A stretch of DNA of 35,751 nt from Candidatus Levyibacteriota bacterium (GTDB taxonomy: Bacteria > Patescibacteriota > Microgenomatia > Levybacterales > UBA12049), in assembly GCA_027459725.1 (NCBI GenBank), contig DAIDHK010000002.1, positions 1-35,751 on the forward strand. The letters are read 5' to 3'. A program made the position numbers and the translations under genes. Under the pieces are notes generated by a model. That model saw nothing but the letters and a program-made list of their open reading frames with translations, did no database searches and had not been told where the DNA came from. Shown here piece after piece: positions 12,307-33,603 of the stretch (position 1 is its first letter; every line of letters begins with the position of its first letter).

Positions 12307-12318
12307 TATAATAATTCT
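12307..12318 (+). promoter_or_regulatory. -10 TATAAT then 6 nt to dnaE ATG (predicted leaderless start)
   Basis: TATAAT 12307-12312 with extended TG upstream (TGCTATAAT), ATG at 12319. Confidence 0.65.
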
Positions 12319-15300
12319 ATGGCCTCGTTTGTTCACCTGCACAATCATTCCGAATTCTCTTTACTAGATGGACTCTCAAAAATAAAAAATATGGCAGCTT
12401 ATGCCAAAGAACTGGGTATGCCTGCTTTAGCAATCACTGATCATGGAAGCATGTATGGAGTAATAAAATTTTATATGGCTTGCAAAGCTGTGAATATAAA
12501 ACCGATTATAGGGTGTGAAATATATGTCGCTAAACGTTCATTGCATGATAAAGAAGCCGGTATTGATAATGAATATAATCATTTAGTTCTTCTGGCCGAA
12601 AATAATACAGGGTATAAAAACCTGATGAAAATTGTTTCAGTCTCCTACCTTGAGGGTTACTACTACAAACCCCGCACCGATCTGGAACTCCTGGAAAAAT
12701 ATCATGAAGGATTAATTTGTCTGTCAGCCTGCGTCAATGGATTTGTCGTGGAACCAATGCTGACGGGAGATGATGAAGAAGGAGAGAAACGTGCTAAAAA
12801 ACTGAATCAGATTTTTGGCCAAAATAATTTTTATCTAGAAATTCAAAGGCACATCGACGTACCTCCTCAGGCTGAAGCGAATAGGAAATTGATTACTTTG
12901 TCAAAGAAACTCGGCATTCCTTTAGTAGCTACTAATGATAATCACTATACCCGTAAAGGTGACGCAGAAGCACAGGAAGTTCTACTTTGCATTCAGACTC
13001 AACAGACTCTACTGGATAAAAACCGCAAACTTTCGATGGTCTCCTCACCTGACTTTTATATCAAATCTGCCGAAGAAATGGAAAATGCCTTCATTGATAT
13101 ACCAGATGCGGTGGAAAACACAGTCAAAATTGCAGAGCGTTGCAATGTTGAAATAACATTGGGTAAATGGATCATGCCGAAGTTTGCAGTGCCACAAAAC
13201 TATACTACTAAAGAGTATCTTAAATATCTGATTGACGAAAGAATTCACAAACGCTATTCAGAAGTAACAGAAGAGATTAAAAAAAGAGTCGATTATGAAC
13301 TGGATATTATTTTTACTAAAGGCTATGAGACCTACTTCTTAACCGTACAAGACTTTGTCAACTGGGCCAAGGATCATGGAATCTCAGTAGGACCAGGTCG
13401 CGGTTCTGCTGCTGGTTCTGTGGTAGCATACATTCTCAATATTACAGACGTTGATCCTTTTTATTTTAAATTGCCATTCGAGAGATTTTTAAATCCTCTA
13501 CGGCCCTCTGCTCCTGATATTGATCTGGACTTTGCAGACGTGCGTCGTGATGAGGTAATTGCTTATGTTACTCAGAAATACGGAGAGGATAAGGTTGCTC
13601 AAATTATCACCTTTGGGACTATGGAAGCCCGAGGTTCTGTTCGCGATGTTGGACGTGTACTGGGTATGCCATACGCTGTACCTGATCGTATCGCCAAAAT
13701 GATTCCTCCAGGCTGGCAAGGACATGCCATGACAATCGAAAACGCCTTGTCACAAAGTCCTGATCTAAAACGTGCTTATGAATCAGAACCAGAAACTAAA
13801 CGTTTGTTAGATCTGGCAACTAAACTTGAAGGAGTAGCTCGTCACGCATCCGTACATGCAGCAGGAGTTGTAATTGCAGATAAACCACTAACTGAATATG
13901 TACCACTGCAAAGAGAAACCAACGGCGATAAAGTCGTTACACAATATGATATGTATACTGTTGGCGAGGACGGGGTAGGACTCTTAAAAATGGACTTTTT
14001 AGGTCTTCGCAACTTAACCATTATCGAAGAAGCTTTAAAATTTATTAAATCCAATCAGGGAGTCGAAATAGATATCTCTACCTTACCATTAGAAGACAAA
14101 AAAACTTATGAGTTGCTTTCACAGGGAGAGACTACAGGCATATTCCAGTTTGAATCTGCAGGTATGAGAAGATATATTAAAGAACTTAAACCTACTTCCA
14201 TATTTGATCTTCAGGCTATGAATGCCTTATATCGTCCTGGTCCCATGGCTAATATTCCGGATTTTATTAAACGAAAAAACAACCCAGCTTTAATCACCTA
14301 TCCTTATCCTGGATTAGAAGATATTTTAAAAGAATCTTATGGAGTGCTGACTTTTCAAGATGATGTTTTACTCACGGTAATTAAACTGGCTGGATATACA
14401 TGGCTGGATGCCGATAAGTTCCGTAAAGCGATGGGTAAGAAAATTCCTGCCGAAATGAAAAAACAGAAAGAGTTATTCATCAATGGCTGCAGGAAAAATG
14501 GTATTACGGAGAAAAAAGCAGATGAGCTATTTGAAATTATTGCCCCCTTTGCAGGTTACGGTTTCAATAAAGCCCACGCAGCATGTTATGCCATTATTGC
14601 CTATCGTACTGCATACTTGAAGGCTCATTATCCGGTTGAATTCATGACGGCATTATTAACTGCTGAATCTCGAGGTACTACAGGTCCTGCTAAGAATGAA
14701 AAAATTTCCCAAGCAGTCGCAGAATGTAAAAGACTAAACGTAGAAGTTTTACCTCCAGATATTAATAAATCACAGGCCGATTTTTCGATAGAAGCAAATA
14801 CTAAAGTCCGCTTCGGCTTAACGGCCATTAAAAACGTAGGTAGTGCAGCAATTGAAAGTATACTTAAGGCAAGAAAAAGCAGCCCATTTATCAGTCTACA
14901 GGATTTTTGTAATCGCGTAAATCTAAGCGCAGTAAATAAAAAAACCTTAGAAAGCCTGTTAAAAGCTGGTACATTTGATCATTTTGGTAACCGTGCAGCC
15001 ATGTTAATTTATATGCCAGATGCAGTAAGTAAAGCAAATGAGGTAAGAAAACAAAATTCCGAGGGTCAAGGCTCTTTTTTTGGAGACTTGTTTGAATCCT
15101 CAGAAATCAGAAACCATACTAAAAATGATGATAATGGTATAGACGATTTTACTCAAAAAGAAAAACTCGCCTTTGAAAAAGAATTTTTGGGTTTTTACTT
15201 GACCTCACACCCCCAAAAGGAAAACTTACAAAAGGTACATAACCACATTTCTCATGAACTGGAACTTTTAGAAGGTGAAGACGAAGGCACCATAGTTACT

Positions 15301-15570
15301 ATTGGGGGTATACTTGATAACGTCAAAAGATTTTTTACAAAGAAATCTAATGCAGAGATGGCATTCTTAAACCTAACCGATGAAAAAGGAATTAGTATTG
15401 AAGTTGTAGTTTTCCCAAAAGTATTCGATCAATACAAAACTTCCCTGTATATTGATAACGTAGTAGTTATTCAGGGTAAACTAAGTAATCGTGATGAAAA
15501 AATATCAATAATTGCGGATCGTATCATTAGTTTGGATAAAATGCTTGACTTACGCTCAAATACACACTAA
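12319..15570 (+). CDS. dnaE: DNA polymerase III subunit alpha
   Basis: N-terminal PHP (FVHLHNHSEFSLLDG), PDIDLDFAD catalytic motif, C-terminal OB domain. Confidence 0.97.
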   Translation: MASFVHLHNHSEFSLLDGLSKIKNMAAYAKELGMPALAITDHGSMYGVIKFYMACKAVNIKPIIGCEIYVAKRSLHDKEAGIDNEYNHLVLLAENNTGYKNLMKIVSVSYLEGYYYKPRTDLELLEKYHEGLICLSACVNGFVVEPMLTGDDEEGEKRAKKLNQIFGQNNFYLEIQRHIDVPPQAEANRKLITLSKKLGIPLVATNDNHYTRKGDAEAQEVLLCIQTQQTLLDKNRKLSMVSSPDFYIKSAEEMENAFIDIPDAVENTVKIAERCNVEITLGKWIMPKFAVPQNYTTKEYLKYLIDERIHKRYSEVTEEIKKRVDYELDIIFTKGYETYFLTVQDFVNWAKDHGISVGPGRGSAAGSVVAYILNITDVDPFYFKLPFERFLNPLRPSAPDIDLDFADVRRDEVIAYVTQKYGEDKVAQIITFGTMEARGSVRDVGRVLGMPYAVPDRIAKMIPPGWQGHAMTIENALSQSPDLKRAYESEPETKRLLDLATKLEGVARHASVHAAGVVIADKPLTEYVPLQRETNGDKVVTQYDMYTVGEDGVGLLKMDFLGLRNLTIIEEALKFIKSNQGVEIDISTLPLEDKKTYELLSQGETTGIFQFESAGMRRYIKELKPTSIFDLQAMNALYRPGPMANIPDFIKRKNNPALITYPYPGLEDILKESYGVLTFQDDVLLTVIKLAGYTWLDADKFRKAMGKKIPAEMKKQKELFINGCRKNGITEKKADELFEIIAPFAGYGFNKAHAACYAIIAYRTAYLKAHYPVEFMTALLTAESRGTTGPAKNEKISQAVAECKRLNVEVLPPDINKSQADFSIEANTKVRFGLTAIKNVGSAAIESILKARKSSPFISLQDFCNRVNLSAVNKKTLESLLKAGTFDHFGNRAAMLIYMPDAVSKANEVRKQNSEGQGSFFGDLFESSEIRNHTKNDDNGIDDFTQKEKLAFEKEFLGFYLTSHPQKENLQKVHNHISHELELLEGEDEGTIVTIGGILDNVKRFFTKKSNAEMAFLNLTDEKGISIEVVVFPKVFDQYKTSLYIDNVVVIQGKLSNRDEKISIIADRIISLDKMLDLRSNTH

Positions 15571-15640
15571 AATTAGATCATTGTGTCAATTTAATTAACT
15601 CAGCAATTATATTTTGAGTTATTAAACTTAGTGACAGATA

Positions 15641-15669
15641 AACGTCAATCAGAAAGGCTGACGTTTTTT
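15641..15669 (+). terminator. Rho-independent terminator between dnaE and atpB
   Basis: AACGTCA (15641-15647)/TGACGTT (15659-15665) followed by T-run. Confidence 0.8.
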
Positions 15670-15695
15670 AATGAACAAGAAGTAGCCTAGTTAAT

Positions 15696-16430
15696 ATGAA
15701 TATATCATTATCTCCAGAAACTTTGTTTAGTATTGGGGGTATTCAAATAACGAATACTCTAACTAATACCCTTCTAGTAGACATTCTTTTAATTACAGTT
15801 TGTTACTTTGTCCATAAAAAGTCTCAATTAATTCCTGGAATATTTCAGAATATTGTGGAAATTATAATTGAAATGTTTTACGATCTAACTGAAACTGTTT
15901 CAAATAAACATGTTCGCCAGATATTCCCTTATGTTATGACCTTTTTCTTCTTCATTGCCTTTGCTAACTGGACTGAGTTAATTCCTGTTTTGGGCGCTTT
16001 CGGCTTTTACCATGGTAATACTTTTATTCCACTTTTTCGTAGCACCTCTACAGATTTAAATACAACATTAGCTTTGGCTCTTGTTTCTTTAAGCATAACC
16101 CATGGAATGAGTATCAAGTATTTGGGTCTTAAAAGCTATTTGGGAAGATTTTTCTCCTGGAATCCATTAAACCTTTATACAGGATTATTGGAATTAGTTT
16201 CAGAATTTACTAAAATTATATCTTTTTCCTTCCGTTTATATGGAAATATTTTTGTTGGAAGTGTGTTTCTTTCTTCAGTAACCGGGGTTTTTGCTTTTTT
16301 CCTGCCAATTCCAGTCTTGTTGTATGAATTGTTTGTTGGTACAATTCAAGCAGCAGTTTTTGCCATGCTGACTATGGCCTTTATGGCAATCATGACAACT
16401 CCGGCACATGGATCGGAGCCACATAAGTAG
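15696..16430 (+). CDS. atpB: F-type ATP synthase subunit a
   Basis: SFSFRLYGNIFVG with essential Arg, multiple TMs, first gene of atp operon. Confidence 0.95.
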   Translation: MNISLSPETLFSIGGIQITNTLTNTLLVDILLITVCYFVHKKSQLIPGIFQNIVEIIIEMFYDLTETVSNKHVRQIFPYVMTFFFFIAFANWTELIPVLGAFGFYHGNTFIPLFRSTSTDLNTTLALALVSLSITHGMSIKYLGLKSYLGRFFSWNPLNLYTGLLELVSEFTKIISFSFRLYGNIFVGSVFLSSVTGVFAFFLPIPVLLYELFVGTIQAAVFAMLTMAFMAIMTTPAHGSEPHK

Positions 16431-16498
16431 CTGTGAAAAAAATAAACTAGAGAAAAATAAGAATGTAAGTAAAATTATATGAAAGTTAATTTATATAA

Positions 16499-16729
<231 letters not shown>

Positions 16730-16736
16730 GAGTCGC

Positions 16737-16772
16737 CTTACCCGTTAGATAAACATTATTGACGCGGGTAAG
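16737..16772 (+). other. Hairpin between atpE and atpF (CTTACCCG-N20-CGGGTAAG)
   Basis: Perfect 8-bp arms 16737-16744 / 16765-16772, no U-tract. Confidence 0.75.
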
Positions 16773-16793
16773 TATGCGAGAAATTAAAATAAT

Positions 16794-17300
16794 ATGGGAA
16801 CAATTTTACAAACATTTGGTATCAATTGGTATCTGCTTGTTGCGCAGGTTGTTAATTTTTTACTAATTTTATATTTATTAAAAAGGTTTGTTTATAAACC
16901 AGTATTCAATATTATAAAAAAACGGGAAGAAATTATTAAAAAAGGCCTCGATGATGCAAAAAAAGGAGAAGAATCATTAAAAACGGCTGAGGAGGAAACA
17001 AAATTAATTGTTAAACAAGCTAGAGATGAAGCAAGAAGTATTTTGGATAGCGCCAGAAAAGAAGCCAGTTTAACTATAGAAGAAGCACAAGAAAAAGCCA
17101 AAAAACAGTCAGCAATTATTATAAAAGAAGGTGAAGAAGCTGTAAAACGAGAAGCTCTTAAAGCTGAAGAGAAATTACTGAAAAAAATAGGTCAAATTGT
17201 TGAAGAGGTTGTAAAACAATCTTTGAAAAATATTCTATCGCCTGAACAACAAAAAGAAGCACTCAAGAATAGTTTGCAATACCTGAATAAACTTAAATAA
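16794..17300 (+). CDS. atpF: F-type ATP synthase subunit b
   Basis: N-terminal TM then long charged Ala/Lys/Glu helix; position in operon. Confidence 0.94.
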   Translation: MGTILQTFGINWYLLVAQVVNFLLILYLLKRFVYKPVFNIIKKREEIIKKGLDDAKKGEESLKTAEEETKLIVKQARDEARSILDSARKEASLTIEEAQEKAKKQSAIIIKEGEEAVKREALKAEEKLLKKIGQIVEEVVKQSLKNILSPEQQKEALKNSLQYLNKLK

Positions 17301-17301
17301 T

Positions 17302-17658
17302 ATGAAGATAAAATTAATTAAACAATTGGCTAAAGCAAGTTTTGATAATAATAGTTTGAACGAAAATAAAATTAAAATTGTCTCGAGTAAGCTTAAACGT
17401 AAAGACTTGCGTTCATACTTACGAGCCTTGAAAATTCTGGATCAGGAAAACACCTTGTTTGTGAGTATGCCTATTACAGATGATGAGAAGGTTAAAAATG
17501 CCTTACAGATACGTTTTCCTAATAAAAAAATTGTCTATACTTTAAATAAAGATTTATTAGCTGGTATAAAGATAGTTAATAACGACCTCTTGTATGATTT
17601 TACGTTACAAGGTAAAATTGAGAGATTGATCGGACACTTTTACGATACAAATGATTAA
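17302..17658 (+). CDS. atpH: F-type ATP synthase subunit delta (short)
   Basis: C-terminal LLAGIKIVNNDLLYDFTLQGKIERL typical of delta; only 118 aa; operon position. Confidence 0.85.
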   Translation: MKIKLIKQLAKASFDNNSLNENKIKIVSSKLKRKDLRSYLRALKILDQENTLFVSMPITDDEKVKNALQIRFPNKKIVYTLNKDLLAGIKIVNNDLLYDFTLQGKIERLIGHFYDTND

Positions 17659-17666
17659 AAATAAAT

Positions 17667-19202
17667 ATGAGTAATACAACTAATATAAATGATGAGTTAA
17701 TTTTACAACAATTAGAAAAGAACTTAATGGATTTCTCATCCGATATTAAAGTTCAGAATGTCGGTAATGTAGAAAAAAATACCGATGGAGTTATCACAGC
17801 TACTGGACTTTCACAGGCAGGTATAGGAGAAGAAGTTGAGTTTGCAAATGGAGTAATGGGAATGATTTTGGGCTTAGATGAGGATTATGCATCTATTATA
17901 GTTTTAGGAGACGGAGATTCTATAGAAGAAGGTTCGAGTGTCAAAAGAACTGGCAGAATATTGAGTATAAACGTTCACGATAGTATTTTAGGTAGAGTGA
18001 TAAACCCAATTGGACAACCGCTTGACGGTAAACCAGAAATTAAAAAAGGAACTTTAATGCCTCTGGAAAAAATTGCTCCAGGGGTTATTGAGCGGGAATC
18101 AGTAGATACACCTTTGAAAACTGGCATCAAAGCTATTGATTCGATGATTCCCATCGGTCGTGGACAACGTGAACTTATCATTGGAGACAGAGGTCTGGGC
18201 AAAACCGCAATTGCTATAGATACAATTATTAATCAAAAAAACCATCCTAAAGATCAGCAGCCTGTTATATGCATCTATGTAGCTATTGGACAAAAACAAT
18301 CAACTGTAGCCCGTGTTATCAATGTTCTGAATGAGTATGGTGCGCTTCCCTATTCTATTGTAGTTTCAGCAAGCGCTTCAGAACCTGTAGCTCTACAATA
18401 TTTATCTCCTTTTGCTGGAGTGGCTATTGCAGAATATTTCTGTGCCAAAGGCAGAGATGTTTTAATTGTTTATGATGATTTAACAAAACATGCTTGGTCA
18501 TACAGACAACTATCACTTGTCCTGCGACGCCCGGCAGGACGAGAGGCTTATCCAGGCGATATTTTCTATCTGCATTCCCGATTGCTGGAAAGAGCAGTCA
18601 AGTTGAGTAAGAAAAATGGTGGCGGATCAATTACAGCGCTTCCCATTATCGAAACACAAGCCGGTGATATTTCGGCATATATTCCAACTAATGTTATTTC
18701 TATAACTGATGGTCAGATTTTCGTCGAATCAGATTTGTTTAATAATGGTATTAGACCTGCCATTAATGCAGGTTACTCAGTATCACGCGTGGGAGGAGCA
18801 GCCCAAACCAGTGCGATGAAATCTGTTATTGGTATGTTGCGCATTGCTCAAGCTCAGTATAGAGAATTAGCTGCATTCGCACAATTTGGGAGTGAGCTCG
18901 ATGCAGAAACTCGTGCACAGTTGGAAAAAGGGAAAAGAACAGTAGAAATACTTAAACAAGCACAATATCACCCACTCTCTGAGCCTTTACAAATTATGTC
19001 AATCTGGTCAGTTAATAATGGTTTTACAGATGATATTCCGACCGATGATGTTCTAAGATTTGAACGTGAGTATCTGGAGTATTTGCAAAGAAAAGGAAAA
19101 AAACTGCTTGATGAATTGTCAACAGGTAAAAAACCCAGTAAAGAAACTCTTGAGCTAATGAAAAAAGTAACTGAAGACTTCAAAAAAACCTTCAGTGCTT
19201 AG
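17667..19202 (+). CDS. atpA: F-type ATP synthase subunit alpha
   Basis: GIKAIDSMIPIGRGQRELIIGDRGLGKTAIA and SVSRVGGAAQ motifs. Confidence 0.97.
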   Translation: MSNTTNINDELILQQLEKNLMDFSSDIKVQNVGNVEKNTDGVITATGLSQAGIGEEVEFANGVMGMILGLDEDYASIIVLGDGDSIEEGSSVKRTGRILSINVHDSILGRVINPIGQPLDGKPEIKKGTLMPLEKIAPGVIERESVDTPLKTGIKAIDSMIPIGRGQRELIIGDRGLGKTAIAIDTIINQKNHPKDQQPVICIYVAIGQKQSTVARVINVLNEYGALPYSIVVSASASEPVALQYLSPFAGVAIAEYFCAKGRDVLIVYDDLTKHAWSYRQLSLVLRRPAGREAYPGDIFYLHSRLLERAVKLSKKNGGGSITALPIIETQAGDISAYIPTNVISITDGQIFVESDLFNNGIRPAINAGYSVSRVGGAAQTSAMKSVIGMLRIAQAQYRELAAFAQFGSELDAETRAQLEKGKRTVEILKQAQYHPLSEPLQIMSIWSVNNGFTDDIPTDDVLRFEREYLEYLQRKGKKLLDELSTGKKPSKETLELMKKVTEDFKKTFSA

Positions 19203-19244
19203 TATCTAACTTTTCGCTTTAAATATTTGACCTTAAACTAAATT

Positions 19245-21559
<2,315 letters not shown>

Positions 21560-21593
21560 TAAATATTTCCTTTTGTTAACTACTCTATAAGTT

Positions 21594-22004
21594 ATGAAAT
21601 TGAAACTGCAAATATTAACTTCAGAACAAGAAATATTTAACGAAGAAGTAGATGAAGTAGTAGTTCCAACCACAGCTGGTGTTATAGGAGTCTTGCCTGA
21701 ACACATGCCGCTAGTTTCACAAATTGCACCAGGAGAACTTGTCATAAAAAATAATGATAAGTCGGAAATGATAGCAGTTTTTGGCGGTTTTATTGAAGTT
21801 AGCAATAATAGTGTCTCAATATTGGCAGATTACGCTGCTCGTGTAGAAGATATTGAATTAGCCAAAGCACAACAAGCTAAAGAACGTGCAGATAAATTGA
21901 TGCAAGAGAAATTATCTGAAAAAGACTTTATTATTGTCGAATCAGAGCTACAGAAGGCACTTATGCAATTACGAATCGCCAATAAATACCGTAAGAACCG
22001 ATAA
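21594..22004 (+). CDS. atpC: F-type ATP synthase subunit epsilon
   Basis: LKLQILTSEQEIFNEEVDEVVVPTTAGVIGVLPEHMPLVSQIAPGEL. Confidence 0.95.
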   Translation: MKLKLQILTSEQEIFNEEVDEVVVPTTAGVIGVLPEHMPLVSQIAPGELVIKNNDKSEMIAVFGGFIEVSNNSVSILADYAARVEDIELAKAQQAKERADKLMQEKLSEKDFIIVESELQKALMQLRIANKYRKNR

Positions 22005-22037
22005 TTCAATCACTTTACCCTCTTTGTTGCTTCATGT

Positions 22038-22043
22038 TAAAAT
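22038..22043 (+). promoter_or_regulatory. -10 TAAAAT (extended TGTTAAAAT) for tRNA-Thr
   Basis: 9 nt upstream of tRNA; weak -35 TTTACC with 18-nt spacer. Confidence 0.5.
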
Positions 22044-22052
22044 ATGCAAGAT

Positions 22053-22124: not shown

Positions 22125-22197
22125 CATTACAGCTATTTTTAAGCTTGTTGTGTAATTGATTAGTTATAATATAATTGATAATATACAAATTTAAATT

Positions 22198-22914
22198 ATG
22201 GCTTCACATATTAAAAGACATTCAGAGGAGCAAAAAAAACATACTATCTTCTTTAGTATATTGGGTTCAATTTTGATAATACTGTTTTTGGCCATTTATG
22301 GACTGCCACTATTTACTAAGTATATTTTATATCTAGGTAATTCTAAATCTCCCTCTAACATTACTCCTGCCCAAGATGGAATAAATTATGTAGCACCACC
22401 CGTATTAGATGATACATTTAGTGCTACAAATAGTGCTATTATGACAGTTAAAGGCATTGCCTCCAAAAACCAAGAAGTTAAGTTATTCGTTAACGGTAGT
22501 ATAGTTGATCAACAAACTACTGATAACAAAGGTAAGTTTACATTCAATAACGTAAGTCTAACTCCTGGGAGCAATCAGATAGAAACTAAAGCTTATGCTG
22601 GCGCTAATAAAGAAAGTTCTTATTCTAATGTCTTAAATATTACATATTTAAATAAAGGACCTACCCTAAATATTGTCTCTCCTGTGGATAATCAGTCTTT
22701 TTCTGGCTCAAGTAATCAAACACTACATATTCAAGGAAATACTGACCCAAATTGTAATGTAACAATTAATGGTTCATGGGCAATTGTTAACAGTGATGGT
22801 AGCTTTACTTATGACTTTCCTTTGCAAAATGGGGACAATCATATAACATTTGTGTCGACTGATCAGGCGGGTAACACCACAACTGTTCAAAGAAAAGTTA
22901 CTTTTAATCCCTAA
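22198..22914 (+). CDS. Membrane-anchored protein with two extracellular Ig-like domains
   Basis: N-terminal TM (IFFSILGSILIILFLAIYGLPLF) and two tandem beta-rich Ig-like repeats (VKGIASKNQEVKLFVNG...; IQGNTDPNCNVTINGS...). Confidence 0.75.
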   Translation: MASHIKRHSEEQKKHTIFFSILGSILIILFLAIYGLPLFTKYILYLGNSKSPSNITPAQDGINYVAPPVLDDTFSATNSAIMTVKGIASKNQEVKLFVNGSIVDQQTTDNKGKFTFNNVSLTPGSNQIETKAYAGANKESSYSNVLNITYLNKGPTLNIVSPVDNQSFSGSSNQTLHIQGNTDPNCNVTINGSWAIVNSDGSFTYDFPLQNGDNHITFVSTDQAGNTTTVQRKVTFNP

Positions 22915-24112
22915 ACACAAAAAAAGCTACTGAGCTTAACCATAAAATTATACTTGGATAAAATAAACTATTAATAAACATAGAGTCAATAATTACTCCT
23001 GCAAAAGAAGCAAAAAATACAGCGGAAAAGATATTTTGTCTTGCTGATTTGTAGCTATTTTTTAAGATAAGAAATATAATGTAAATAAAACTGGCAAACC
23101 CAAATATACCAGTAGTTGCCCAAACAAATAACAGACTATTATCTGTACCGGCATTTGCATGACTAATTATAGAAGCCTGCGAAGAATGTTTAATTAAACC
23201 GTAGTTATGTTGAGCATAGCGGTATGCATCAAATCCGACACCTAATAAGATATTTCGCTGAATTACATAGACTACATTATCAATAGCGGCAAATCTAGCT
23301 TCTACAGAAGCTACTCTAAAGTAATCAGTATTTTCAATATTTTGTTTCGGTGCAACAATGATAAGCATGAGTACTAAACATCCTAAGACAATAAATATAT
23401 AACGTTTTCTCATAGTGAATATAAAAAATAGAAACACAGATACAAGTAACATGACTAAAGCGCTACGCGAGAAAGTTAGAAAGATAGCAAAAAGAGTAAT
23501 TAGTAAAAAAAACAAAATCATAACTCTGAAATAGTTATTAACTTTAGACTTGTAAATAAACCAAATACCAAGAAGAAAAGTAAACAATAAAGTGAAATAT
23601 GCACCCGCAAAATTAGGGTCAAAAAAAGAGCTGAAGAGTCTATATAAATGATCATCCCACCCTGCGTAATACAAATTTCGTAAGTTGGAATAAAATATAT
23701 ATTGAATAAATCCAGCAAGTACAAGGCTTAGTCCAGTAAGTGTCAAAGAAAGTAATACAAAACTTTTTTCTTTTGAGTTTTTAAACAATAGTGTTGTAAC
23801 AAAGAAAACCAACAAATAAGTTAAAAAACGTATCAAATAAAGTACTGCGACAACATTTTGAAAAATCGTATAGTTTCTGAAATTAAATATTAATGATACA
23901 AATACGACAAGCAAAAAAAACAATACAGCCTTCGGTAGTTTTAATACTATTTTCTTTAGTTCTTTATACTTAGCAAGTACACCATAAAACACATAGATTG
24001 CAACAGTAGTATCAAGAACTGTTAATGAGATGTCATTTTGAAAATCCAGCCTGCCAGCCTGGTTCAAAAACATGCCCACGCAAACAAATACAAATAGAAT
24101 ACGTTTAATCAT
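22904..24112 (-). CDS. O-antigen ligase/polymerase-like (Wzy-type) polytopic membrane protein
   Basis: ~10 TMs, LTFSRSALVMLLVSV motif and large periplasmic loop GVGFDAYRYAQHN typical of Wzy_C/O-antigen ligase. Confidence 0.8.
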   Translation of the reverse strand: MIKRILFVFVCVGMFLNQAGRLDFQNDISLTVLDTTVAIYVFYGVLAKYKELKKIVLKLPKAVLFFLLVVFVSLIFNFRNYTIFQNVVAVLYLIRFLTYLLVFFVTTLLFKNSKEKSFVLLSLTLTGLSLVLAGFIQYIFYSNLRNLYYAGWDDHLYRLFSSFFDPNFAGAYFTLLFTFLLGIWFIYKSKVNNYFRVMILFFLLITLFAIFLTFSRSALVMLLVSVFLFFIFTMRKRYIFIVLGCLVLMLIIVAPKQNIENTDYFRVASVEARFAAIDNVVYVIQRNILLGVGFDAYRYAQHNYGLIKHSSQASIISHANAGTDNSLLFVWATTGIFGFASFIYIIFLILKNSYKSARQNIFSAVFFASFAGVIIDSMFINSLFYPSIILWLSSVAFFVFRD

Positions 24113-24124
24113 AAATAAATTATA
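24113..24124 (-). promoter_or_regulatory. -10 TATAAT then 6 nt to Wzy-like ATG (predicted leaderless)
   Basis: Minus-strand TATAAT 24124-24119, ATG at 24112. Confidence 0.6.
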
Positions 24125-24156
24125 GCCTAATGCTCTATAAGCGACAAACTAATACT

Positions 24157-25761: not shown

Positions 25762-25773
25762 TGCTGTTAGAAG

Positions 25774-25908
25774 TTAAATGTGTTTTAGAATGAGATTTAT
25801 TCCCTTCACTCTTTCTATTAAGTTTATATAATATAAGATCAAACAGAAAAAAGTCCAGATGATAAAGATAGTTATATAAAAAATTTTATTATACTTTATT
25901 TTTTTCAT
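25774..25908 (-). CDS. Candidate 44-aa single-TM small protein (not in ORF track)
   Basis: MKKIKYNKIFYITIFIIWTFFCLILYYINLIERVKGINLILKHI*; AAGGA 10 nt upstream of ATG; stop 12 nt before next gene. Confidence 0.5.
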   Translation of the reverse strand: MKKIKYNKIFYITIFIIWTFFCLILYYINLIERVKGINLILKHI

Positions 25909-26650
25909 ACTGTATCCATCCTTTGCTTCTTACTAGATATGAATGGAAGCTCATCATGACTGCCACAATTAAGCCGGGTACACCATCCAAAAAACCCATT
26001 TTAAAAATATAATTGTAAATAAATTTAAGTAAAGGAAATACTATAATTTGCCATGAATAAATTCTCTTATTGTTTTGGTATAGTTCATTAGAGCGCAAAT
26101 CTGTATAATGATTTATTTCAGATAAAAAGTCACTAATATTCTGATGAGGGTAATGAAATAATACATTTGATAATTTATTTGTTTTACCTTTTATTTTCCA
26201 TACTTCATGTACCCTATTTCTCCATAATCCAGCGTCTTTTTTTGCCAATCTAAGAATATAGACGTTAGCTAGTTCGCCGAATTCGAGCTTTTTACCCCAA
26301 AGACAGTCGACTCTTTTTAGGTAATAGCCATTAAAGGATAGAAACTGATTATTAATCTGGTTAGTAATTTCATATTGTAGGGATAAAGTGACTTCTTCAT
26401 CAGCATCAACAAAAAATACCCATGTATTTTTAGCCTGAGTTAGAGCGAAGTTCCTTTGTTGTGCAAAATCGTTATTTAAAGAATGCTGAATTATTTTTGC
26501 GTTATAAGTTTTAGCTATCTCAAGTGTATTGTCAGTAGAAAAATCATCAACTATGATAACTTCGTCGCACCATTTAATTGAATCTAGGCATCTTTTAAAT
26601 GTTTGTTCTTCATTTTTTGTTAAAATAATTGCACTAATACCCTGTTGCAT
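25889..26650 (-). CDS. GT2 family glycosyltransferase (WaaE/KdtX-like)
   Basis: ISAIILTKNEEQTFKRCLDSIKWCDEVIIVDDFSTDNT, FVDADEEV, WRNRVHEVW. Confidence 0.9.
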   Translation of the reverse strand: MQQGISAIILTKNEEQTFKRCLDSIKWCDEVIIVDDFSTDNTLEIAKTYNAKIIQHSLNNDFAQQRNFALTQAKNTWVFFVDADEEVTLSLQYEITNQINNQFLSFNGYYLKRVDCLWGKKLEFGELANVYILRLAKKDAGLWRNRVHEVWKIKGKTNKLSNVLFHYPHQNISDFLSEINHYTDLRSNELYQNNKRIYSWQIIVFPLLKFIYNYIFKMGFLDGVPGLIVAVMMSFHSYLVRSKGWIQYEKNKV

Positions 26651-26651
26651 A

Positions 26652-28835
26652 TCAATAGTTTACCACCTTGTTGATTTTAATTGTTTTATTTTCACTAATT
26701 ACGAATTTTATAATACTATTTTTCATTTTTTCTGGTTTACCTAACCACCATGTTAAATATTGCATGTTCATAGTAAATGATGCGAACTGACTTCCAGTGC
26801 CTTTACCTAACAAACTATAGCTTTCTCCACCTGATTGTTTAATAATACTTTTAGCAGAAATTAATCTGTCTGCATATGAAATTTGTGGGTAAAATGGCAT
26901 TTTTGAAAAAGCTGTTTTAATATTTGATACTCCTAAGAATATTAATAGAACTGTTATAACAAAAGAAGATATTTTATGTCTAACAAATGCTTGCGCAAAT
27001 ATATATCCTTCTAAGAGAAAGATAAGAGGTAAAAACATTGGTAGATAAGCTTGAGAGTTCACACCTCCACCTATAAAACCTATTAATAAAACCAATAATA
27101 TAAAAATAGTACTATTTAAATATATATTTCGATATTTGTATACTGAATAAATCAAATAAAATCCACTAAATAGAGAGATTACTACAGCAATATAAATCAA
27201 ACCTGGAAGAATAGCTTGGTTGTATGCAATCCAGAGAAAAGTCAAAGAATTAAGTGGGTTACCGGAATGATGTAAACTTAGTAACTGTAGTATTTTATAA
27301 ATAATCCAGGCCATATATCCAAATGTCTGAGGAAATCCATGTCCAATATCATAAATTAACATCGGCACTAAAGGTATGATTAATAATACAATTGATTTTA
27401 ATATAATGTGACTATTTTGAATGCTTTTCCACCATTTTGTATTTTTTTTGTATCCATAAACCAGTAAAACACTAACAATGGCAAAAAACAAACTAGTAGA
27501 TATTTCTAAATTATATAGTAAAGATAACATAAACAATACCCAGGGGAAATAGGCCGGTTTGTTATTTATCCAGTTAAATATAAAAAATATTAACAAAGAC
27601 ACTGCAAAAGGAATCAAAGTAGTATGATAAGGCATACGGTCAAACATAATTCCCAAAGGAGAAGTGGCATAAAAAAAAGCTGCAATGATACCGCTAGGAT
27701 AGCCAAAGAAATTATTACCAATCCGATAAAGCAAGTAAGATGTTGCTAAAGCAGACAGTGCAGATATAGCAGCTCCTGCTAAAGGATTAAAGTGAAAGAT
27801 TAATAGCCCGATTGCCAGCACATAAGTCCACAAGGGACCTTGATGCAACCAAACATGACTTGAAGTAATACCAACCAAAGGGATTATATGATCAACAATC
27901 ATATTTTTAGCAGATAAATAAAACCAAGCTTGATCTCCTATAAAGAACATTTCATGAGGTAAGTTATATAGTCTTATACCAATGGTTAATGTTAAAACAA
28001 AAAACAAAATAATATTAACGGGAGTTATATTTAACATAAAATCTAGTATTTTACTTAAAATTGACCCGTAATTCTTCGTAAAATAATACTGCCTGCTGTT
28101 TTTAAATATTAAATCAGTTTTGGAATTTGGTGCAGTGGATTTTCCCCAAAAATGTATTATTTTACTGTCAGGGACTATAGCAATTTTATAACCCATCTTT
28201 TTAACACGATTACAAAGATCAAACTCTTCAAAATATAAAAAGAATTTCTCGTCAAAACCCTTTATTTTTTCATAAATACTTCTTCTAATAACGAATGCAG
28301 AACCAGGCACAACATCAACATTTTTTATTTGTTTTTTATTCCAATTTTTTTGCCAGTAATCGCCGGCAATCCAATTATTTGGAAAATACTTGTTAATAAA
28401 ACTTAAAACAAAGATCGCTCTAAGAAAGGTTAATTTCTTGACCCCCTGAAGTTCATAGACTTGATAATGTTTATTCATTAACTGTGGGGCTGCAATTGCA
28501 TATTCATCATGTTTATTTAAAAAAGTAACTAAATTTTTAATATTATTATTTAAAATAATGGTATCTGGATTGAGAATATACAAATATCTACCTTTAGCAT
28601 CTTTAGCTCCCAAATTCATCCCCGCACCATAACCTATATTTCCCGGACTTTTTATATATTTTATAAATGGGAACTTATTAATCAATTCTTGACCAATTGT
28701 CTTCTTTTCATCATTATCCACTACAATAATCTCAGCTTTTATGTCTGACTTTACTTTAAGAATTGACCAAATGCAATTGAAAAGTATTTTTTTTACTTTA
28801 TAGTGAACGATTATAATTGAGACATCAGGTACCAT
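26652..28835 (-). CDS. Fusion: N-terminal GT2 glycosyltransferase + C-terminal GT39-like polytopic GT-C
   Basis: GT2 motifs VSIIIVHYKVKK, YILNPDTIIL, FFLYFEEFDLCNRVK (~1-260); then FIGDQAWFYLSAKNM and HQGPLWTYVLAIGL with multiple TMs. Confidence 0.85.
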   Translation of the reverse strand: MVPDVSIIIVHYKVKKILFNCIWSILKVKSDIKAEIIVVDNDEKKTIGQELINKFPFIKYIKSPGNIGYGAGMNLGAKDAKGRYLYILNPDTIILNNNIKNLVTFLNKHDEYAIAAPQLMNKHYQVYELQGVKKLTFLRAIFVLSFINKYFPNNWIAGDYWQKNWNKKQIKNVDVVPGSAFVIRRSIYEKIKGFDEKFFLYFEEFDLCNRVKKMGYKIAIVPDSKIIHFWGKSTAPNSKTDLIFKNSRQYYFTKNYGSILSKILDFMLNITPVNIILFFVLTLTIGIRLYNLPHEMFFIGDQAWFYLSAKNMIVDHIIPLVGITSSHVWLHQGPLWTYVLAIGLLIFHFNPLAGAAISALSALATSYLLYRIGNNFFGYPSGIIAAFFYATSPLGIMFDRMPYHTTLIPFAVSLLIFFIFNWINNKPAYFPWVLFMLSLLYNLEISTSLFFAIVSVLLVYGYKKNTKWWKSIQNSHIILKSIVLLIIPLVPMLIYDIGHGFPQTFGYMAWIIYKILQLLSLHHSGNPLNSLTFLWIAYNQAILPGLIYIAVVISLFSGFYLIYSVYKYRNIYLNSTIFILLVLLIGFIGGGVNSQAYLPMFLPLIFLLEGYIFAQAFVRHKISSFVITVLLIFLGVSNIKTAFSKMPFYPQISYADRLISAKSIIKQSGGESYSLLGKGTGSQFASFTMNMQYLTWWLGKPEKMKNSIIKFVISENKTIKINKVVNY

Positions 28836-28838
28836 ATA

Positions 28839-30053
28839 TTAATACAAAACCTTGAGGACATAATAAATTTGTGGAAGTATCCCAATTAATGATCCGATTA
28901 ATACCGCGTAAGCAGCCCCAATTATTCCATATTGAGTAACCATAGGAAAGATAAAGACAACAATTGCTAAAAAGTTTATTAGGGTTACTAAAGTAACATA
29001 CTCCTGCTTTTTTAAAGCAAAAAGCAGTGTTGTGGTCAATCCGAATATTCCTCTCATTACAGCAACGAATAGTAGAACTCTCAGTACTGGTACAATAGAA
29101 ATCCAGCTTGAGCCTAGAATAATATTTACTGCAAAAGGAGCAATTATCCACATAAGCAAACTAAATATAACACTTAAAATAACAGTTATTAAAGTTCTTA
29201 TAAACGCTCTTCTTAACCTATGCAGATCATCGGATATTTTTACGTAGACAGGTAATGTCACTTTTGCAAACATATCGAAAAGCTGAATTATAGGGTATAC
29301 TGAGAATCTATAGGCCATTTGATAAAAACCTAGCTGCGTAGCATTTAATAACCTACCTACTACAAAATCGTCAAAATTTAAGAAAAAGTAGTTAAAAACT
29401 CCTGCTAATGTTATCCATTTACCTCTATGGAATATTTTACTAATATACTGCTTATGGATTTTAAACTTGGGTTTTTCTTTAAATATAATAAAAGATATAA
29501 TAACTTCAGCAAATACACTGAATACCTGACCAAAAACTATACTAAGAACGGAGTGAGTAATGAATGCAAGTGAAATAGCTATTATTGCATCTATTAACAA
29601 CAATCCTGTTCGAAAGTAAAATTCCTTATTGAACTGTAGTTCTTTTTGAAAGATAACTTCAGAAGGATTTATAAAACCCCTTAAAAAGGGTACTATACTA
29701 AGTATTAAAATGACGGTTGTTGCTGCGGGCGAATGAAAAAAATTTGCTATAAGAGGCGCAAATAAAAGCAATACCAAACTAATAATTATTCCTCTTCCAA
29801 TAGAGACAATCCATGCACTATCCAGATGAACGCTAATATCGTCTCTCTCCTGGACTAAAAATACATTTACACCAGTCTCTGTTAAAGTCTCGAGCAACGT
29901 TAACATTAGAGATGCAATACCAAATATCCCAAATTGAATAGGAGTTAAAAATCTAGCTAACACCAATATTTTTGCTAAACCTAGAACTTTAGTTACTCCT
30001 TGCAAAGAGACGGTCCAGGATACGCCCCACAAGGTCTGTTTTGTATATCCCAT
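28839..30053 (-). CDS. Polysaccharide flippase (Wzx/MOP superfamily)
   Basis: LWGVSWTVSLQGVTKVLGLAKILVLARFLTPIQFGIFGIA and polytopic topology. Confidence 0.88.
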   Translation of the reverse strand: MGYTKQTLWGVSWTVSLQGVTKVLGLAKILVLARFLTPIQFGIFGIASLMLTLLETLTETGVNVFLVQERDDISVHLDSAWIVSIGRGIIISLVLLLFAPLIANFFHSPAATTVILILSIVPFLRGFINPSEVIFQKELQFNKEFYFRTGLLLIDAIIAISLAFITHSVLSIVFGQVFSVFAEVIISFIIFKEKPKFKIHKQYISKIFHRGKWITLAGVFNYFFLNFDDFVVGRLLNATQLGFYQMAYRFSVYPIIQLFDMFAKVTLPVYVKISDDLHRLRRAFIRTLITVILSVIFSLLMWIIAPFAVNIILGSSWISIVPVLRVLLFVAVMRGIFGLTTTLLFALKKQEYVTLVTLINFLAIVVFIFPMVTQYGIIGAAYAVLIGSLIGILPQIYYVLKVLY

Positions 30054-30065
30054 ATGTTTATTGTA
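30054..30065 (-). promoter_or_regulatory. -10 TACAAT (extended TGATACAAT) then 6 nt to flippase ATG
   Basis: Minus-strand TACAAT 30065-30060, ATG at 30053. Confidence 0.55.
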
Positions 30066-31034
30066 TCAAATAATTGAGCTTAGAGTGCGTTTATCCAAAA
30101 TCTTTTTTAGTAAAGATATTGAACCAAGCACTGTTCCAGCTATAACACAAATATCAGATATTCCTTGTAATAGAGGCAAAATAATTAATGCTTGCACTCC
30201 AAGTACATATCTATAGTTTTTATAAATAGACCATATACAATATATTATAAAGCAAGTCATTATCCATATGAAAAGAAATAAAGAATGATATAAAATCAGA
30301 TAAACTATTAATATGGCTAAAATCAAATAACGTAAGAAAATTAATATCACTTTTACACGGATTATTCCTGCTTCCGCATCTCCAAGCGCGAATCTAAAAA
30401 TCATTTTTATAAATTTAAAGATATTGGTAGGTGGTATCCATTCAACTATCGCTGATTTAACGAATGTTATGTTCTTTTTGTATAATATTAATTTTTTACT
30501 AAATGCATAATCTTCATTATGTGAAAGTTTTTCATCGAATCCACCTAAATCCTCCCAAACTTTTTTTCTAAACGCCATTGATCTTGTAGCAGGCAAGAAG
30601 TTTGCAGGAGCTATTTTATCCGGCATAACCAGAACATACGGAACTTCACATTGCTCAAAAATATTACTGGCCTTACCTCTATAATATCCCGCCACAACTT
30701 CTACGTGTTTATCTATAAATGGTCTAGTTATATTTTTGATCCAATTCTTATCTAGAACACAACCTGCATCTGAGCATAATATAATATTGTTTCTAGAGTT
30801 TTCAATTGCTAAGTTCCTTCCTACAGAACGATTGCCCTTTTTTTGTAATATAATTATCTTAATTTTATGTTCTATTGAGAATTGTTTAATTATACTTAAA
30901 GTCCCATCAGTTGATCCTCCATCAACAATAATAAGTTCATTAGGTAATATGGACTGATTCACAATTGATTCTAAAAAACTTAAGATATTAATTTCTTCAT
31001 TAAAAACCGTGGAGATAAATGTAGTTTTCATCAT
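30066..31034 (-). CDS. GT2 family glycosyltransferase with C-terminal TMs
   Basis: FISTVFNEEINILSFLESIVNQSILPNELIIVDGGSTDGT; ATGA overlap with upstream GT4 (ORF-track start 31046). Confidence 0.9.
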   Translation of the reverse strand: MMKTTFISTVFNEEINILSFLESIVNQSILPNELIIVDGGSTDGTLSIIKQFSIEHKIKIIILQKKGNRSVGRNLAIENSRNNIILCSDAGCVLDKNWIKNITRPFIDKHVEVVAGYYRGKASNIFEQCEVPYVLVMPDKIAPANFLPATRSMAFRKKVWEDLGGFDEKLSHNEDYAFSKKLILYKKNITFVKSAIVEWIPPTNIFKFIKMIFRFALGDAEAGIIRVKVILIFLRYLILAILIVYLILYHSLFLFIWIMTCFIIYCIWSIYKNYRYVLGVQALIILPLLQGISDICVIAGTVLGSISLLKKILDKRTLSSII

Positions 31035-32038
31035 TGCTTTCCCCATAATTGTAAATATAAATCAGAAACTCTTTCCCATGTTTGATCTTTTGCCCAAAGG
31101 AAACCTTGTTCTACTTTTTTCTTTTCCAACTCTGGATTTGCTAAATATTTTTCAATTATAGCTATAATTTCATTATCGCTGTTTACAATAGTAATAAATT
31201 TAGCAAATGGAGTTAATTCCAAATAATCTTTTTTAAGCGGATTATCATATACAGCAATAACAGGACGTTTAGCAATTAATGCTTCTAAAATAGTTAAGTA
31301 TCCAGAAACAAAGGCGTAATGATGATTTATGTAATAACTTTTCGGATCCCTCTTGACACCTATATAATTTACTGATGAATCTATATGTTTTTTTAATAGG
31401 CCTTCCCCTACCACAGTAAGTGTAAACTTTGAGTACCTACTCCTGATAACTTTATATGCTGACAAGTATGTGTTAATCCCTGTGTCGTTACTCAATCTTC
31501 CGATAAAAAAAGCAGAATATTTATTATTAATATTCTTATTCTTTATCATATCAGCGCCACCATACGATATGTAGTCAGGTTTTGTTCCATACCAGCTTTG
31601 AATAAAACTTCCTATGCATATATTGCCTTTAGATAATATTTCGGCCAGTTTTCTTCCCAAAACTGCTCTATTTTTTAAAGGATAGCCCTCATAACCATGA
31701 AAAGTTATGTATACAGGTTTATTAAAATACAATATTTTTAAGGGAAAATACCAGAAAAATATATCGTGACAATGAACCACATCAGAATCTAATATAATTT
31801 TTTTTAATTTCCAAATCTCTTTCCAAATTCTAAATTTTTTAAACCAGTCTTCTTTGCCTTGATTAATTCTTATTATGTTTATTCCATCTAGATTTTCTTC
31901 AGATTTAAACCCATGATTTTCAGTTATTATTGTAACTTGATGCCCGTATGATATTAGATTTTTACTAATCTTATAAACATGCTTTTCTACCCCTCCAATA
32001 TGAGGGTAAAATAAACGAGTAATAAATATAATTTTCAT
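31031..32038 (-). CDS. GT4 family glycosyltransferase
   Basis: ITRLFYPHIGGVEKHVYKISKNLISYGHQVTIIT, YSAFFIGRLSNDTGINTYLSAY, C-terminal EALIAKRPVIA. Confidence 0.9.
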   Translation of the reverse strand: MKIIFITRLFYPHIGGVEKHVYKISKNLISYGHQVTIITENHGFKSEENLDGINIIRINQGKEDWFKKFRIWKEIWKLKKIILDSDVVHCHDIFFWYFPLKILYFNKPVYITFHGYEGYPLKNRAVLGRKLAEILSKGNICIGSFIQSWYGTKPDYISYGGADMIKNKNINNKYSAFFIGRLSNDTGINTYLSAYKVIRSRYSKFTLTVVGEGLLKKHIDSSVNYIGVKRDPKSYYINHHYAFVSGYLTILEALIAKRPVIAVYDNPLKKDYLELTPFAKFITIVNSDNEIIAIIEKYLANPELEKKKVEQGFLWAKDQTWERVSDLYLQLWGKQ

Positions 32039-32050
32039 GTTTATATTATA
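32039..32050 (-). promoter_or_regulatory. -10 TATAAT then 6 nt to GT4 ATG (predicted leaderless)
   Basis: Minus-strand TATAAT 32050-32045, ATG at 32038. Confidence 0.6.
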
Positions 32051-32071
32051 GCTGATTAATTATACTGGTGT

Positions 32072-32083
32072 TATAATTGCTAT
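32072..32083 (+). promoter_or_regulatory. Extended -10 TGTTATAAT then 6 nt to methyltransferase GTG
   Basis: TATAAT 32072-32077, GTG at 32084. Confidence 0.6.
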
Positions 32084-32842
32084 GTGTCCAAATTTTATAG
32101 TTCGCAAAAATATAAATTATATGAAACCTTTCATAAAGACAGAAGATTACAAAAACGTATCATTGACGAGAATAACTTTACATATAAAGAAATATTAAAA
32201 ACTATTCGCCCATACATAAAAACATCTAAAAAAGTCTTAGATATTGGATCTGGAGTTGGAACAATAGATTTTTACTTAGCCTCAAAAGGAATAAATACAA
32301 CAGGAATTGAAATTTCCCAAAAAGCTGTAGCTTTAGCTAAGGTGAATAGTCGTTTTTTAGGACTTGATAAAAAAACAAAATTTATTTCCGCTAATTTTTC
32401 GAATTATAAATCCAAAGAGAAGTTTGATTTAGTTATTCTATCAGAAGTTATTGAACATCTGGAAAATGAAAAAGAGATTTTATTTAAAATAAAAAACTTT
32501 ATGAATAAAAATTCAGTTCTTATAATTACTACACCCTCTCAAAAGGCTCCATTATATAAATTGGGTTTATTAAAACAATTTGATCTTAACGTAGGACACA
32601 TTAGAAGATATACAACAGAGAGTTTGAAGGATTTATTAGAAAAGAATGGCTTTAAAGTCATACATATTAGTAAACATGAAGGCATTTTGCGTAATTTCCT
32701 TTTTACAAACCCAGTTGCCGGAAGACTAGTCCGCATTATACGTTGGCAAATTGGAGACTTAGTCAGTTTCATGGATAACCTCACTATCCCTTTATTAGGA
32801 GAATCAAATATTCATATAATAGCAAAAGTTCTAAAAGACTAA
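32084..32842 (+). CDS. Class I SAM-dependent methyltransferase
   Basis: KKVLDIGSGVGTIDFYLASKG motif I, FDLVILSEVIEHL. Confidence 0.9.
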   Translation: MSKFYSSQKYKLYETFHKDRRLQKRIIDENNFTYKEILKTIRPYIKTSKKVLDIGSGVGTIDFYLASKGINTTGIEISQKAVALAKVNSRFLGLDKKTKFISANFSNYKSKEKFDLVILSEVIEHLENEKEILFKIKNFMNKNSVLIITTPSQKAPLYKLGLLKQFDLNVGHIRRYTTESLKDLLEKNGFKVIHISKHEGILRNFLFTNPVAGRLVRIIRWQIGDLVSFMDNLTIPLLGESNIHIIAKVLKD

Positions 32843-32896
32843 TAACACAATTTTATATGTTAGAGGATAAGTTGTAGATTATATTTTTAATTTAAG

Positions 32897-32970
32897 TGGA
32901 CTTGAGAGGATTCGAACCTCTGACCTTTCGAATGTGAATCGAACGCTCTAACCAGCTGAGCTACAAATCC
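32897..32970 (-). tRNA. tRNA-Val(CAC)
   Basis: GGATTTG/CAAGTCC acceptor, TTCGA-TTCACAT-TCGAA anticodon arm, AGAGGTTCGAATCCTCT T arm, discriminator A. Confidence 0.93.
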
Positions 32971-32982
32971 CGATCAAACAGT

Positions 32983-33011
32983 ATTTTAACAATTTTTCTT
33001 ACGGTTGACAA
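32983..33011 (-). promoter_or_regulatory. tRNA-Val promoter TTGTCA-N17-TAAAAT (extended TGTTAAAAT)
   Basis: -35 33006-33011, -10 32983-32988 on minus strand. Confidence 0.75.
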
Positions 33012-33033
33012 ACGCATGCCTATTCTCGATAAT
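33005..33033 (+). promoter_or_regulatory. lepB promoter TTGACA-N17-GATAAT
   Basis: -35 33005-33010, -10 33028-33033, 6 nt to ATG 33040. Confidence 0.75.
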
Positions 33034-33039
33034 ATGAGA

Positions 33040-33603
33040 ATGGAAATTTTCAAAAAGGTATGGGCGTTCCTGATCGATAGCTTTCAAACAATCCTTCTTG
33101 CGGCTTCTATATTTCTTGTGGTATATCTTTTTATATTTAGACCATTCCAAGTTAGCGGTTTATCTATGTATCCAAATTTTCATGATAAAGAATATATTCT
33201 CACAAGCATTATCTCAATTAAGCTAGCACCACTTAAAAGAGGAGATGTCATTGTGTTTATTGCACCTGACGATCCTTCTAAAGATTATATTAAACGGATA
33301 ATAGGTCTTCCAGGTGATACAATCATGTTGAAAAATGGTAACGTATATGAGAATGGTAAACTATATAATGAGTCTAGTTATCTTAAACCTACCGTCAAAA
33401 CATACGGAGGAGCCTTTCTGAGAGAAGGAGTGACTATAACGGTTCCTCAAGGAAACTATTTCGTTATGGGTGATAATAGGCCAGAAAGCTCAGATTCGAG
33501 AGAATGGGGTTATGTAAGCTTCGGAGCGGTTATCGGTAAATCTTTCTTGGTATATTGGCCAGCTAATAGAATGCAATTTATAACTAACCCATTTAAAAAC
33601 TAA
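33040..33603 (+). CDS. lepB: Signal peptidase I
   Basis: VSGLSMYPNF (Ser), KDYIKRIIGLPGD (Lys), VMGDNRPESSDSREWG; ORF-track start 33016 overlaps the promoter, so ATG 33040 is preferred. Confidence 0.92.
   Translation: MEIFKKVWAFLIDSFQTILLAASIFLVVYLFIFRPFQVSGLSMYPNFHDKEYILTSIISIKLAPLKRGDVIVFIAPDDPSKDYIKRIIGLPGDTIMLKNGNVYENGKLYNESSYLKPTVKTYGGAFLREGVTITVPQGNYFVMGDNRPESSDSREWGYVSFGAVIGKSFLVYWPANRMQFITNPFKN

What the first reader, a model, noticed from the sequence alone, without database searches (positions are those of the whole stretch)
12307..33042. Recurrent '-10 box / exactly 6 nt / start codon' arrangement predicts leaderless mRNAs at six genes
Six first-in-transcript genes on both strands have a -10 hexamer ending exactly 6 nt before the start codon: dnaE (TATAAT-AATTCT-ATG 12319), Wzy-like (TATAAT-TTATTT-ATG 24112), flippase (TACAAT-AAACAT-ATG 30053), GT4 (TATAAT-ATAAAC-ATG 32038), methyltransferase (TATAAT-TGCTAT-GTG 32084) and lepB (GATAAT-ATGAGA-ATG 33040). 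With a usual 6-nt discriminator the transcription start falls on the first base of the start codon. polX and murT have 8-nt gaps. By contrast, operon-internal genes such as lemA, gatB and atpE carry SD-like sequences. The fixed spacing is directly visible; leaderless initiation is an inference from known TANNNT-associated leaderless starts in other bacteria.
Basis: partly seen in the sequence, partly recalled or inferred. Interest (0 to 1): 0.72.

Follow-up and report, generated by a model that had tools for sequence, protein, structure and literature searches.

The report
Leaderless-gene promoters in a CPR bacterium
In this uncultured Patescibacterium (Candidatus Levybacteria), many genes have their promoter so close to the start codon that the mRNA should begin at or within a few bases of the start codon, and the same signature runs through most of the Patescibacteria genomes sampled.

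Summary
In 836 kb (56%) of the host genome, 55 of 494 operon-first genes carry a -10-like hexamer ending exactly 6 nt before the start codon (5.6 in dinucleotide shuffles, maximum 12). For TATAAT alone the count is 27 against 1.1. Spacings below 6 are empty, spacings 7-15 form a decaying tail, and operon-internal genes lack the box. Hexamers at spacing 6, chosen on the hexamer only, also carry unselected promoter parts: TG one base upstream and TTG at -35, with a 17-nt spacer. Spacing is conserved: 11 of 15 sites stay at exactly 6 in a same-genus genome, against 9 of 77 for distant hexamers. At lepB, TTGACA-N17/18-NANAAT sits 6-8 nt before the start in 23 of 29 loci. TATAAT-N6-ATG exceeds TATAAT-N3-ATG in 127 of 144 other Patescibacteria (2.8-fold overall, 1.12-fold in 31 non-CPR genomes). 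The best reading is sigma-70 promoters that start transcription on or just before the start codon. This is a known kind of system (leaderless genes) in a phylum where I found no report. No RNA 5' ends were available.

The parts
12307..12312 (+). dnaE -10 box TATAAT, preceded by TG (12304-12305); 6-nt gap 12313-12318; ATG 12319
   Evidence: TATAAT at the same spacing in the same-genus orthologue (94% protein identity) although the flanks have diverged
12319..15570 (+). dnaE, DNA polymerase III alpha
   Evidence: Pfam PF07733, PF02811, PF17657; start fixed by the PHP domain beginning at residue 6 and by aligned homologues
24119..24124 (-). Wzy-like gene -10 box TATAAT; gap 24113-24118; ATG 24112; -35-like TTGTCG at 24142-24147, spacer 17
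   Evidence: spacing kept in the same-genus orthologue
22904..24112 (-). O-antigen ligase/polymerase-like (Wzy_C)
   Evidence: PF04932, E 3e-17
30060..30065 (-). flippase box TACAAT, 6 nt before ATG 30053; abuts the stop codon of the upstream same-strand gene, so operon-internal by distance
28839..30053 (-). polysaccharide flippase (Polysacc_synt_3)
   Evidence: PF13440, E 1e-64
32045..32050 (-). GT4 -10 box TATAAT; gap 32039-32044; ATG 32038; -35-like ATAACA 32069-32074
31031..32038 (-). family 4 glycosyltransferase
   Evidence: PF13439, E 5e-16
32072..32077 (+). methyltransferase -10 box TATAAT; gap 32078-32083; GTG 32084; the two divergent promoters share 45 bp and overlap
32084..32842 (+). 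SAM methyltransferase
   Evidence: PF13489, E 5e-22
33005..33010 (+). lepB -35 box TTGACA, overlapping the divergent TTGTCA -35 of tRNA-Val
   Evidence: 11 of 12 sigma-70 match with the -10; TTGACA kept in 29 of 30 loci
33028..33033 (+). lepB -10 box GATAAT, spacer 17 from TTGACA; gap 33034-33039; ATG 33040
33040..33603 (+). lepB, signal peptidase I; 33040 preferred over the longer start 33016
   Evidence: PF10502, E 2e-46; homologues
5193..5198 (+). murT -10 box TATAAT, 8 nt before ATG 5207 (predicted leader about 2 nt)

Best explanation
These are ordinary housekeeping (sigma-70 type) promoters placed so that the RNA polymerase start site falls on, or a few bases before, the first base of the start codon. 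The mRNAs therefore have no leader or one too short (0 to about 9 nt) to hold a Shine-Dalgarno site. The ribosome must then recognise the 5'-terminal AUG (or GUG) directly, presumably as a 70S or initiator-tRNA-bound particle as for leaderless mRNAs elsewhere. About 19% of operon-first genes have a -10-like box at spacing 6-8 (3% background) and 35% at 6-15 (11% background). Shown: position, excess, promoter anatomy and conservation. Inferred: the exact +1, and the translation mechanism.
For: Peak at 6 with an empty 0-5 zone and a 7-15 tail. Shuffles: 27 against 1.1 and 55 against 5.6. At spacing-6 sites G -14 is 0.58 and T -15 is 0.55; T -35 is 0.64, T -34 0.53, G -33 0.42 (background G 0.15, T 0.35), giving a 17-nt spacer. 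TG before the box is 42% at spacing 6, 10-12% beyond 25 and 3% at 0-5. Strict SD is absent at spacing-6 genes, 0 of 55. The same spacing is kept in a same-genus genome for 11 of 15 sites, against 9 of 77 for distant hexamers. lepB promoter at 6-8 nt in 23 of 29 loci. Phylum-wide N6 against N3: 3337 against 1194; non-CPR 749 against 666.
Against: No mapped 5' ends. The discriminator length of this polymerase is assumed from other bacteria. Start codons were mostly chosen by a simple own gene caller (leftmost ATG rule). The lepB -35 is also constrained by the divergent tRNA-Val promoter. IF3, which opposes leaderless initiation in E. coli, is present. Relatives keep an intact anti-SD, and some operon-internal genes use SD, so the mechanism is not exclusive.
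Confidence: 0.88

Rival explanations
1. The hexamers are chance matches in AT-rich (35% GC) upstream DNA.
For: 35% GC and A/T-rich start regions give a background near 1 TATAAT per position over 494 genes.
Against: 27 against 1.1 in dinucleotide shuffles; spacings 0-5 are empty; operon-internal genes lack the peak; spacing is conserved across species.
Confidence: 0.02
2. The promoters are real but the true leaders are short rather than absent: +1 lies 1-9 nt upstream of the start codon in most cases, and an A/U-rich, unstructured 5' end lets the 30S bind without SD.
For: Tail at spacings 7-15, which also carries TG and -35 elements; lepB gaps of 7-8 outnumber 6 in relatives; T at -1 in all gene classes.
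Against: The single highest position is 6, with a sharp edge at 5; a short-leader rule would not predict so sharp a maximum at the leaderless register.
Confidence: 0.2
3. The box is a translational signal (a TATAAT/AU-rich enhancer before the start codon), not a promoter.
For: Strict SD use is low throughout this genome, so other initiation signals might be expected.
Against: Absent from operon-internal genes; accompanied by -35 and TG elements with promoter spacing.
Confidence: 0.03
4. The start codons are mis-called: real starts lie downstream, so the promoters serve short SD-led leaders.
For: The gene caller is simple; lepB shows that alternative starts exist.
Against: dnaE and lepB starts agree with homologues; spacing is conserved relative to the called ATG, and the annotation-free count also peaks at 6.
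Confidence: 0.03

Closest known systems
TANNNT-led leaderless genes of bacteria (Zheng et al. 2011, PMC3160421)
   Same: A -10-type box counted about 12 bp upstream of the start from its first T, i.e. a 6-nt gap; classed there as leaderless because the 5' UTR is missing or very short.
   Different: The passages I read name no CPR group; here the host is a Patescibacterium, with an exact TATAAT and often TG and TTG at -35.
'-10 region adjacent to ORF' pattern in Deinococcus-Thermus (PMC12340547)
   Same: The -10 region lies immediately upstream of the ORF; that paper shows by experiment that it works as promoter for leaderless mRNA, and that adding a -35 raises transcription.
   Different: Reported there for about a third of D. 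radiodurans genes; here about 19% of operon-first genes at spacing 6-8. That survey used completely sequenced species and excluded unclassified or symbiotic ones, so most CPR were probably left out.
Leaderless transcriptome of Mycobacterium tuberculosis (PMC3898074)
   Same: Many mRNAs without a leader.
   Different: Demonstrated by 5'-triphosphate RNA-seq there; sequence-only here; distant phylum, and low G+C here.
GeneMarkS-2 genome class with leaderless bacterial promoters (Lomsadze et al. 2018; not held in the library, recalled from memory)
   Same: Models a Pribnow box a few nt before starts as the main upstream signal.
   Different: Could not check whether CPR genomes were classed there.

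Membership tests
Leaderless genes with a sigma-70 -10 box at the start codon | -10 hexamer ending about 6-7 nt before the start codon, above chance | tested here: met
   27 against 1.1 (TATAAT) and 55 against 5.6 (-10-like)
Leaderless genes with a sigma-70 -10 box at the start codon | The box is a promoter: -35 and/or extended -10 at correct spacing | tested here: met
   TG at -15/-14 and TTG at -35..-33, 17-nt spacer
Leaderless genes with a sigma-70 -10 box at the start codon | Restricted to first genes of transcripts | tested here: met
   Operon-internal genes: 1 TATAAT at spacing 6 in 254
Leaderless genes with a sigma-70 -10 box at the start codon | No SD at these genes | tested here: met
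   Strict SD 0 of 55
Leaderless genes with a sigma-70 -10 box at the start codon | Spacing conserved in evolution | tested here: met
   11 of 15 exact in a same-genus genome; lepB in 23 of 29 loci at 6-8 nt
Leaderless genes with a sigma-70 -10 box at the start codon | mRNA 5' end on the start codon | not testable with these tools
   No 5'-end RNA data available
Leaderless genes with a sigma-70 -10 box at the start codon | Translation from the 5'-terminal AUG by 70S or an equivalent route | not testable with these tools
   Needs a reporter or in-vitro test; an IF3 gene is present and a short S1 homologue was found
SD-independent genome through anti-SD loss (considered) | 16S rRNA 3' tail lacks CCUCC | tested here: not met
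   17 of 18 relatives keep GGATCACCTCC; the host's own 16S is missing from its assembly

The most novel reading that the evidence does not exclude
Leaderless or near-leaderless initiation is an ancestral, phylum-wide default for operon-first genes in Patescibacteria. Together with weak SD use inside operons and a strong U preference at -1 before start codons, it would mean that these reduced ribosomes start most proteins without SD pairing although the anti-SD is intact.
Probability: 0.4. Interest if true: 0.75.

Novelty: new member of a known kind. Interest (0 to 1): 0.55.

Why it matters
Patescibacteria make up a large share of bacterial diversity, and their small ribosomes are under study, yet I found no account of how they start transcripts or choose start codons. 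A sequence signature present in most sampled genomes makes leaderless initiation in this phylum directly testable in cultivated members. It also has practical use: it gives promoter positions and corrects start codons (lepB here), which SD-based gene finders can miss.

Tried and rejected
The 'of' option takes only genome handles, so my first non-CPR control calls failed and the control was run with locus handles instead. dnaE orthologues across the family were a poor footprint, because in most relatives dnaE appears to follow a neighbouring gene closely; only the same-genus genome, L032 and a Roizmanbacterium (L049) keep TATAAT at 6. I considered T at -1 as a transcription-start signature and rejected it, since it is as strong in operon-internal genes (65%) as at spacing-6 genes (69%). 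Anti-SD loss as the cause was rejected. Pooled 20-kb stretches from other Patescibacteria families were too small for per-genome profiles, but the pool shows 9 boxes at spacing 6 against a background of 0.97. Literature searches for leaderless transcripts or SD use in Patescibacteria, CPR or Saccharibacteria returned only incidental mentions.

Full report
WHAT WAS CHECKED. The window belongs to a 1.495-Mb, 52-contig, 98.7%-complete genome. Its DnaE is nearest to Candidatus Levybacteria (Microgenomates, Patescibacteria/CPR), 65-71% identity. All six claimed strings are present at the stated positions.

GENOME-WIDE TALLY. I read 836 kb (the window plus 40 stretches of 20 kb), called 800 genes with a dicodon model that uses no upstream information, and took the leftmost acceptable ATG as start. 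Among 494 operon-first genes (divergent, or at least 40 nt after a same-strand gene), TATAAT counts by gap to the start codon were: 0-5 nt, 1-2 each; 6 nt, 27; 7 nt, 9; 8 nt, 6; then a tail to about 15 nt; background about 1. In 254 operon-internal genes spacing 6 has one. Without any annotation, TATAAT-Nk-ATG also peaks at k=6 (49, against 14-36 at all other spacings from 0 to 20). Dinucleotide shuffles of the upstream 45 nt give 1.1 (max 6 of 300) against 27, and 5.6 (max 12) against 55 for -10-like hexamers.

THEY ARE PROMOTERS. The 55 spacing-6 genes were chosen on the hexamer alone. Their upstream logo shows T 0.55 and G 0.58 at -15/-14 (extended -10) and T 0.64, T 0.53, G 0.42 at -35/-34/-33, i.e. 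TTG with a 17-nt spacer to a -10 at -12..-7, when A of ATG is numbered +1. By gap class, TG precedes the box in 42% (6), 44% (7), 33% (9-11) and 27% (12-15), falling to 10-14% beyond 16 and 3% at 0-5; spacing 8 is low (2 of 16). So functional promoters concentrate at gaps 6-15, i.e. predicted leaders of 0 to about 9 nt. About 19% of operon-first genes have a box at 6-8 (3.4% expected) and 35% at 6-15 (10.5% expected).

CONSERVATION. Against a same-genus genome (G145; 250 orthologue pairs, median 81% protein identity), flanks at -60..-37 are 33% identical in spacing-6 genes but the hexamer is 81% identical. 11 of 15 hexamers stay at exactly 6, 6 of 9 at 7 and 4 of 5 at 8, while hexamers at 16-59 keep spacing in 9 of 77. 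dnaE and the Wzy-like gene are among those kept. For lepB, 29 of 30 loci (the host and 29 relatives) carry TTGACA; at a 17-18-nt spacer a -10-like NANAAT follows, and the gap to the start is 6-8 in 23 of 29. In several of them the frame upstream of the 33040 equivalent contains stops, so 33040 rather than 33016 is the lepB start.

BREADTH. Over 144 other Patescibacteria genomes (81 family labels), TATAAT-N6-ATG occurs 3337 times against 1194 for the phase-matched TATAAT-N3-ATG. N6 exceeds N3 in 127 genomes and falls below in 11; 69 genomes are individually significant at 0.01. The reversed pattern gives a ratio of only 1.16, and 31 non-CPR genomes give 749 against 666, ratio 1.12. Gene-level profiles of 19 further Levybacteria-type loci (13 boxes at 6; background 0.9) and of one extreme genome, G109 (124 TATAAT-N6-ATG against 14 N3), agree.

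TRANSLATION CONTEXT. Strict SD motifs are scarce: 0 of 55 spacing-6 genes, 5.7% of operon-first genes and 15% of operon-internal ones, with control windows at 4-7%. The anti-SD is intact in 17 of 18 relatives with a full-length 16S match; the host's own 16S is not in its assembly. An IF3 gene is present and the best bS1 match is a 361-aa open frame below the rpsA cut-off. So SD pairing is available but little used. T precedes the start codon in 59-69% of genes in every class (29% for all ATG), which I read as a translation-side preference rather than a transcription start signature.

The flippase is operon-internal by distance; its box may still be an internal promoter. polX has TATAAA, not a good -10. 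The SD contrast holds only weakly. 'Exactly 6' is the mode, not the rule.

VERDICT. The leaderless interpretation is supported at the level of promoter position, anatomy and conservation. The +1 and the translation route are inferred. The mechanism matches the known TANNNT-led leaderless genes (PMC3160421; tested experimentally in Deinococcus, PMC12340547). What appears unreported, in the open papers searchable here, is its use in Patescibacteria and its spread through that phylum.

Noticed in passing
window 32983-33033: lepB and the divergent tRNA-Val share one overlapping -35: TTGACA on + and TTGTCA on - within TTGACAA (33005-33011), with tRNA-side -10 TAAAAT (32983-32988) at 17 nt. A nearby divergent tRNA-Val is detected in 28 of 30 lepB loci, and in 24 of 27 testable loci a -10-like hexamer (4 or more of 6) lies at 16-18 nt on the tRNA side, so this looks like a conserved bidirectional promoter.
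   Followed up: partly
whole genome sample; window genes: T at -1 before the start codon in 59-69% of genes in all classes (29% for all ATG); 49-55% in other Levybacteria and Paceibacteria loci, 33-36% in Firmicutes, 9-20% in deltaproteobacterial loci.
   Followed up: partly
window 32039-32083: Two divergent leaderless-type promoters (GT4 and methyltransferase) lie in only 45 bp, each -10 falling in the other's -35 region, so binding should be mutually exclusive.
   Followed up: no
G109 (Patescibacteria, family label f14): Extreme signature: 124 TATAAT-N6-ATG against 14 TATAAT-N3-ATG in about 0.7 Mb; the box also appears at spacing 6 before closely packed genes (6 TATAAT in 61), alongside frequent SD (39-44%).
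   Followed up: partly
G202 (genome of L095, recorded as Nitrospirae bacterium): Among non-CPR controls this genome has a clear N6 excess (65 against 31), a possible further leaderless-rich lineage.
   Followed up: no
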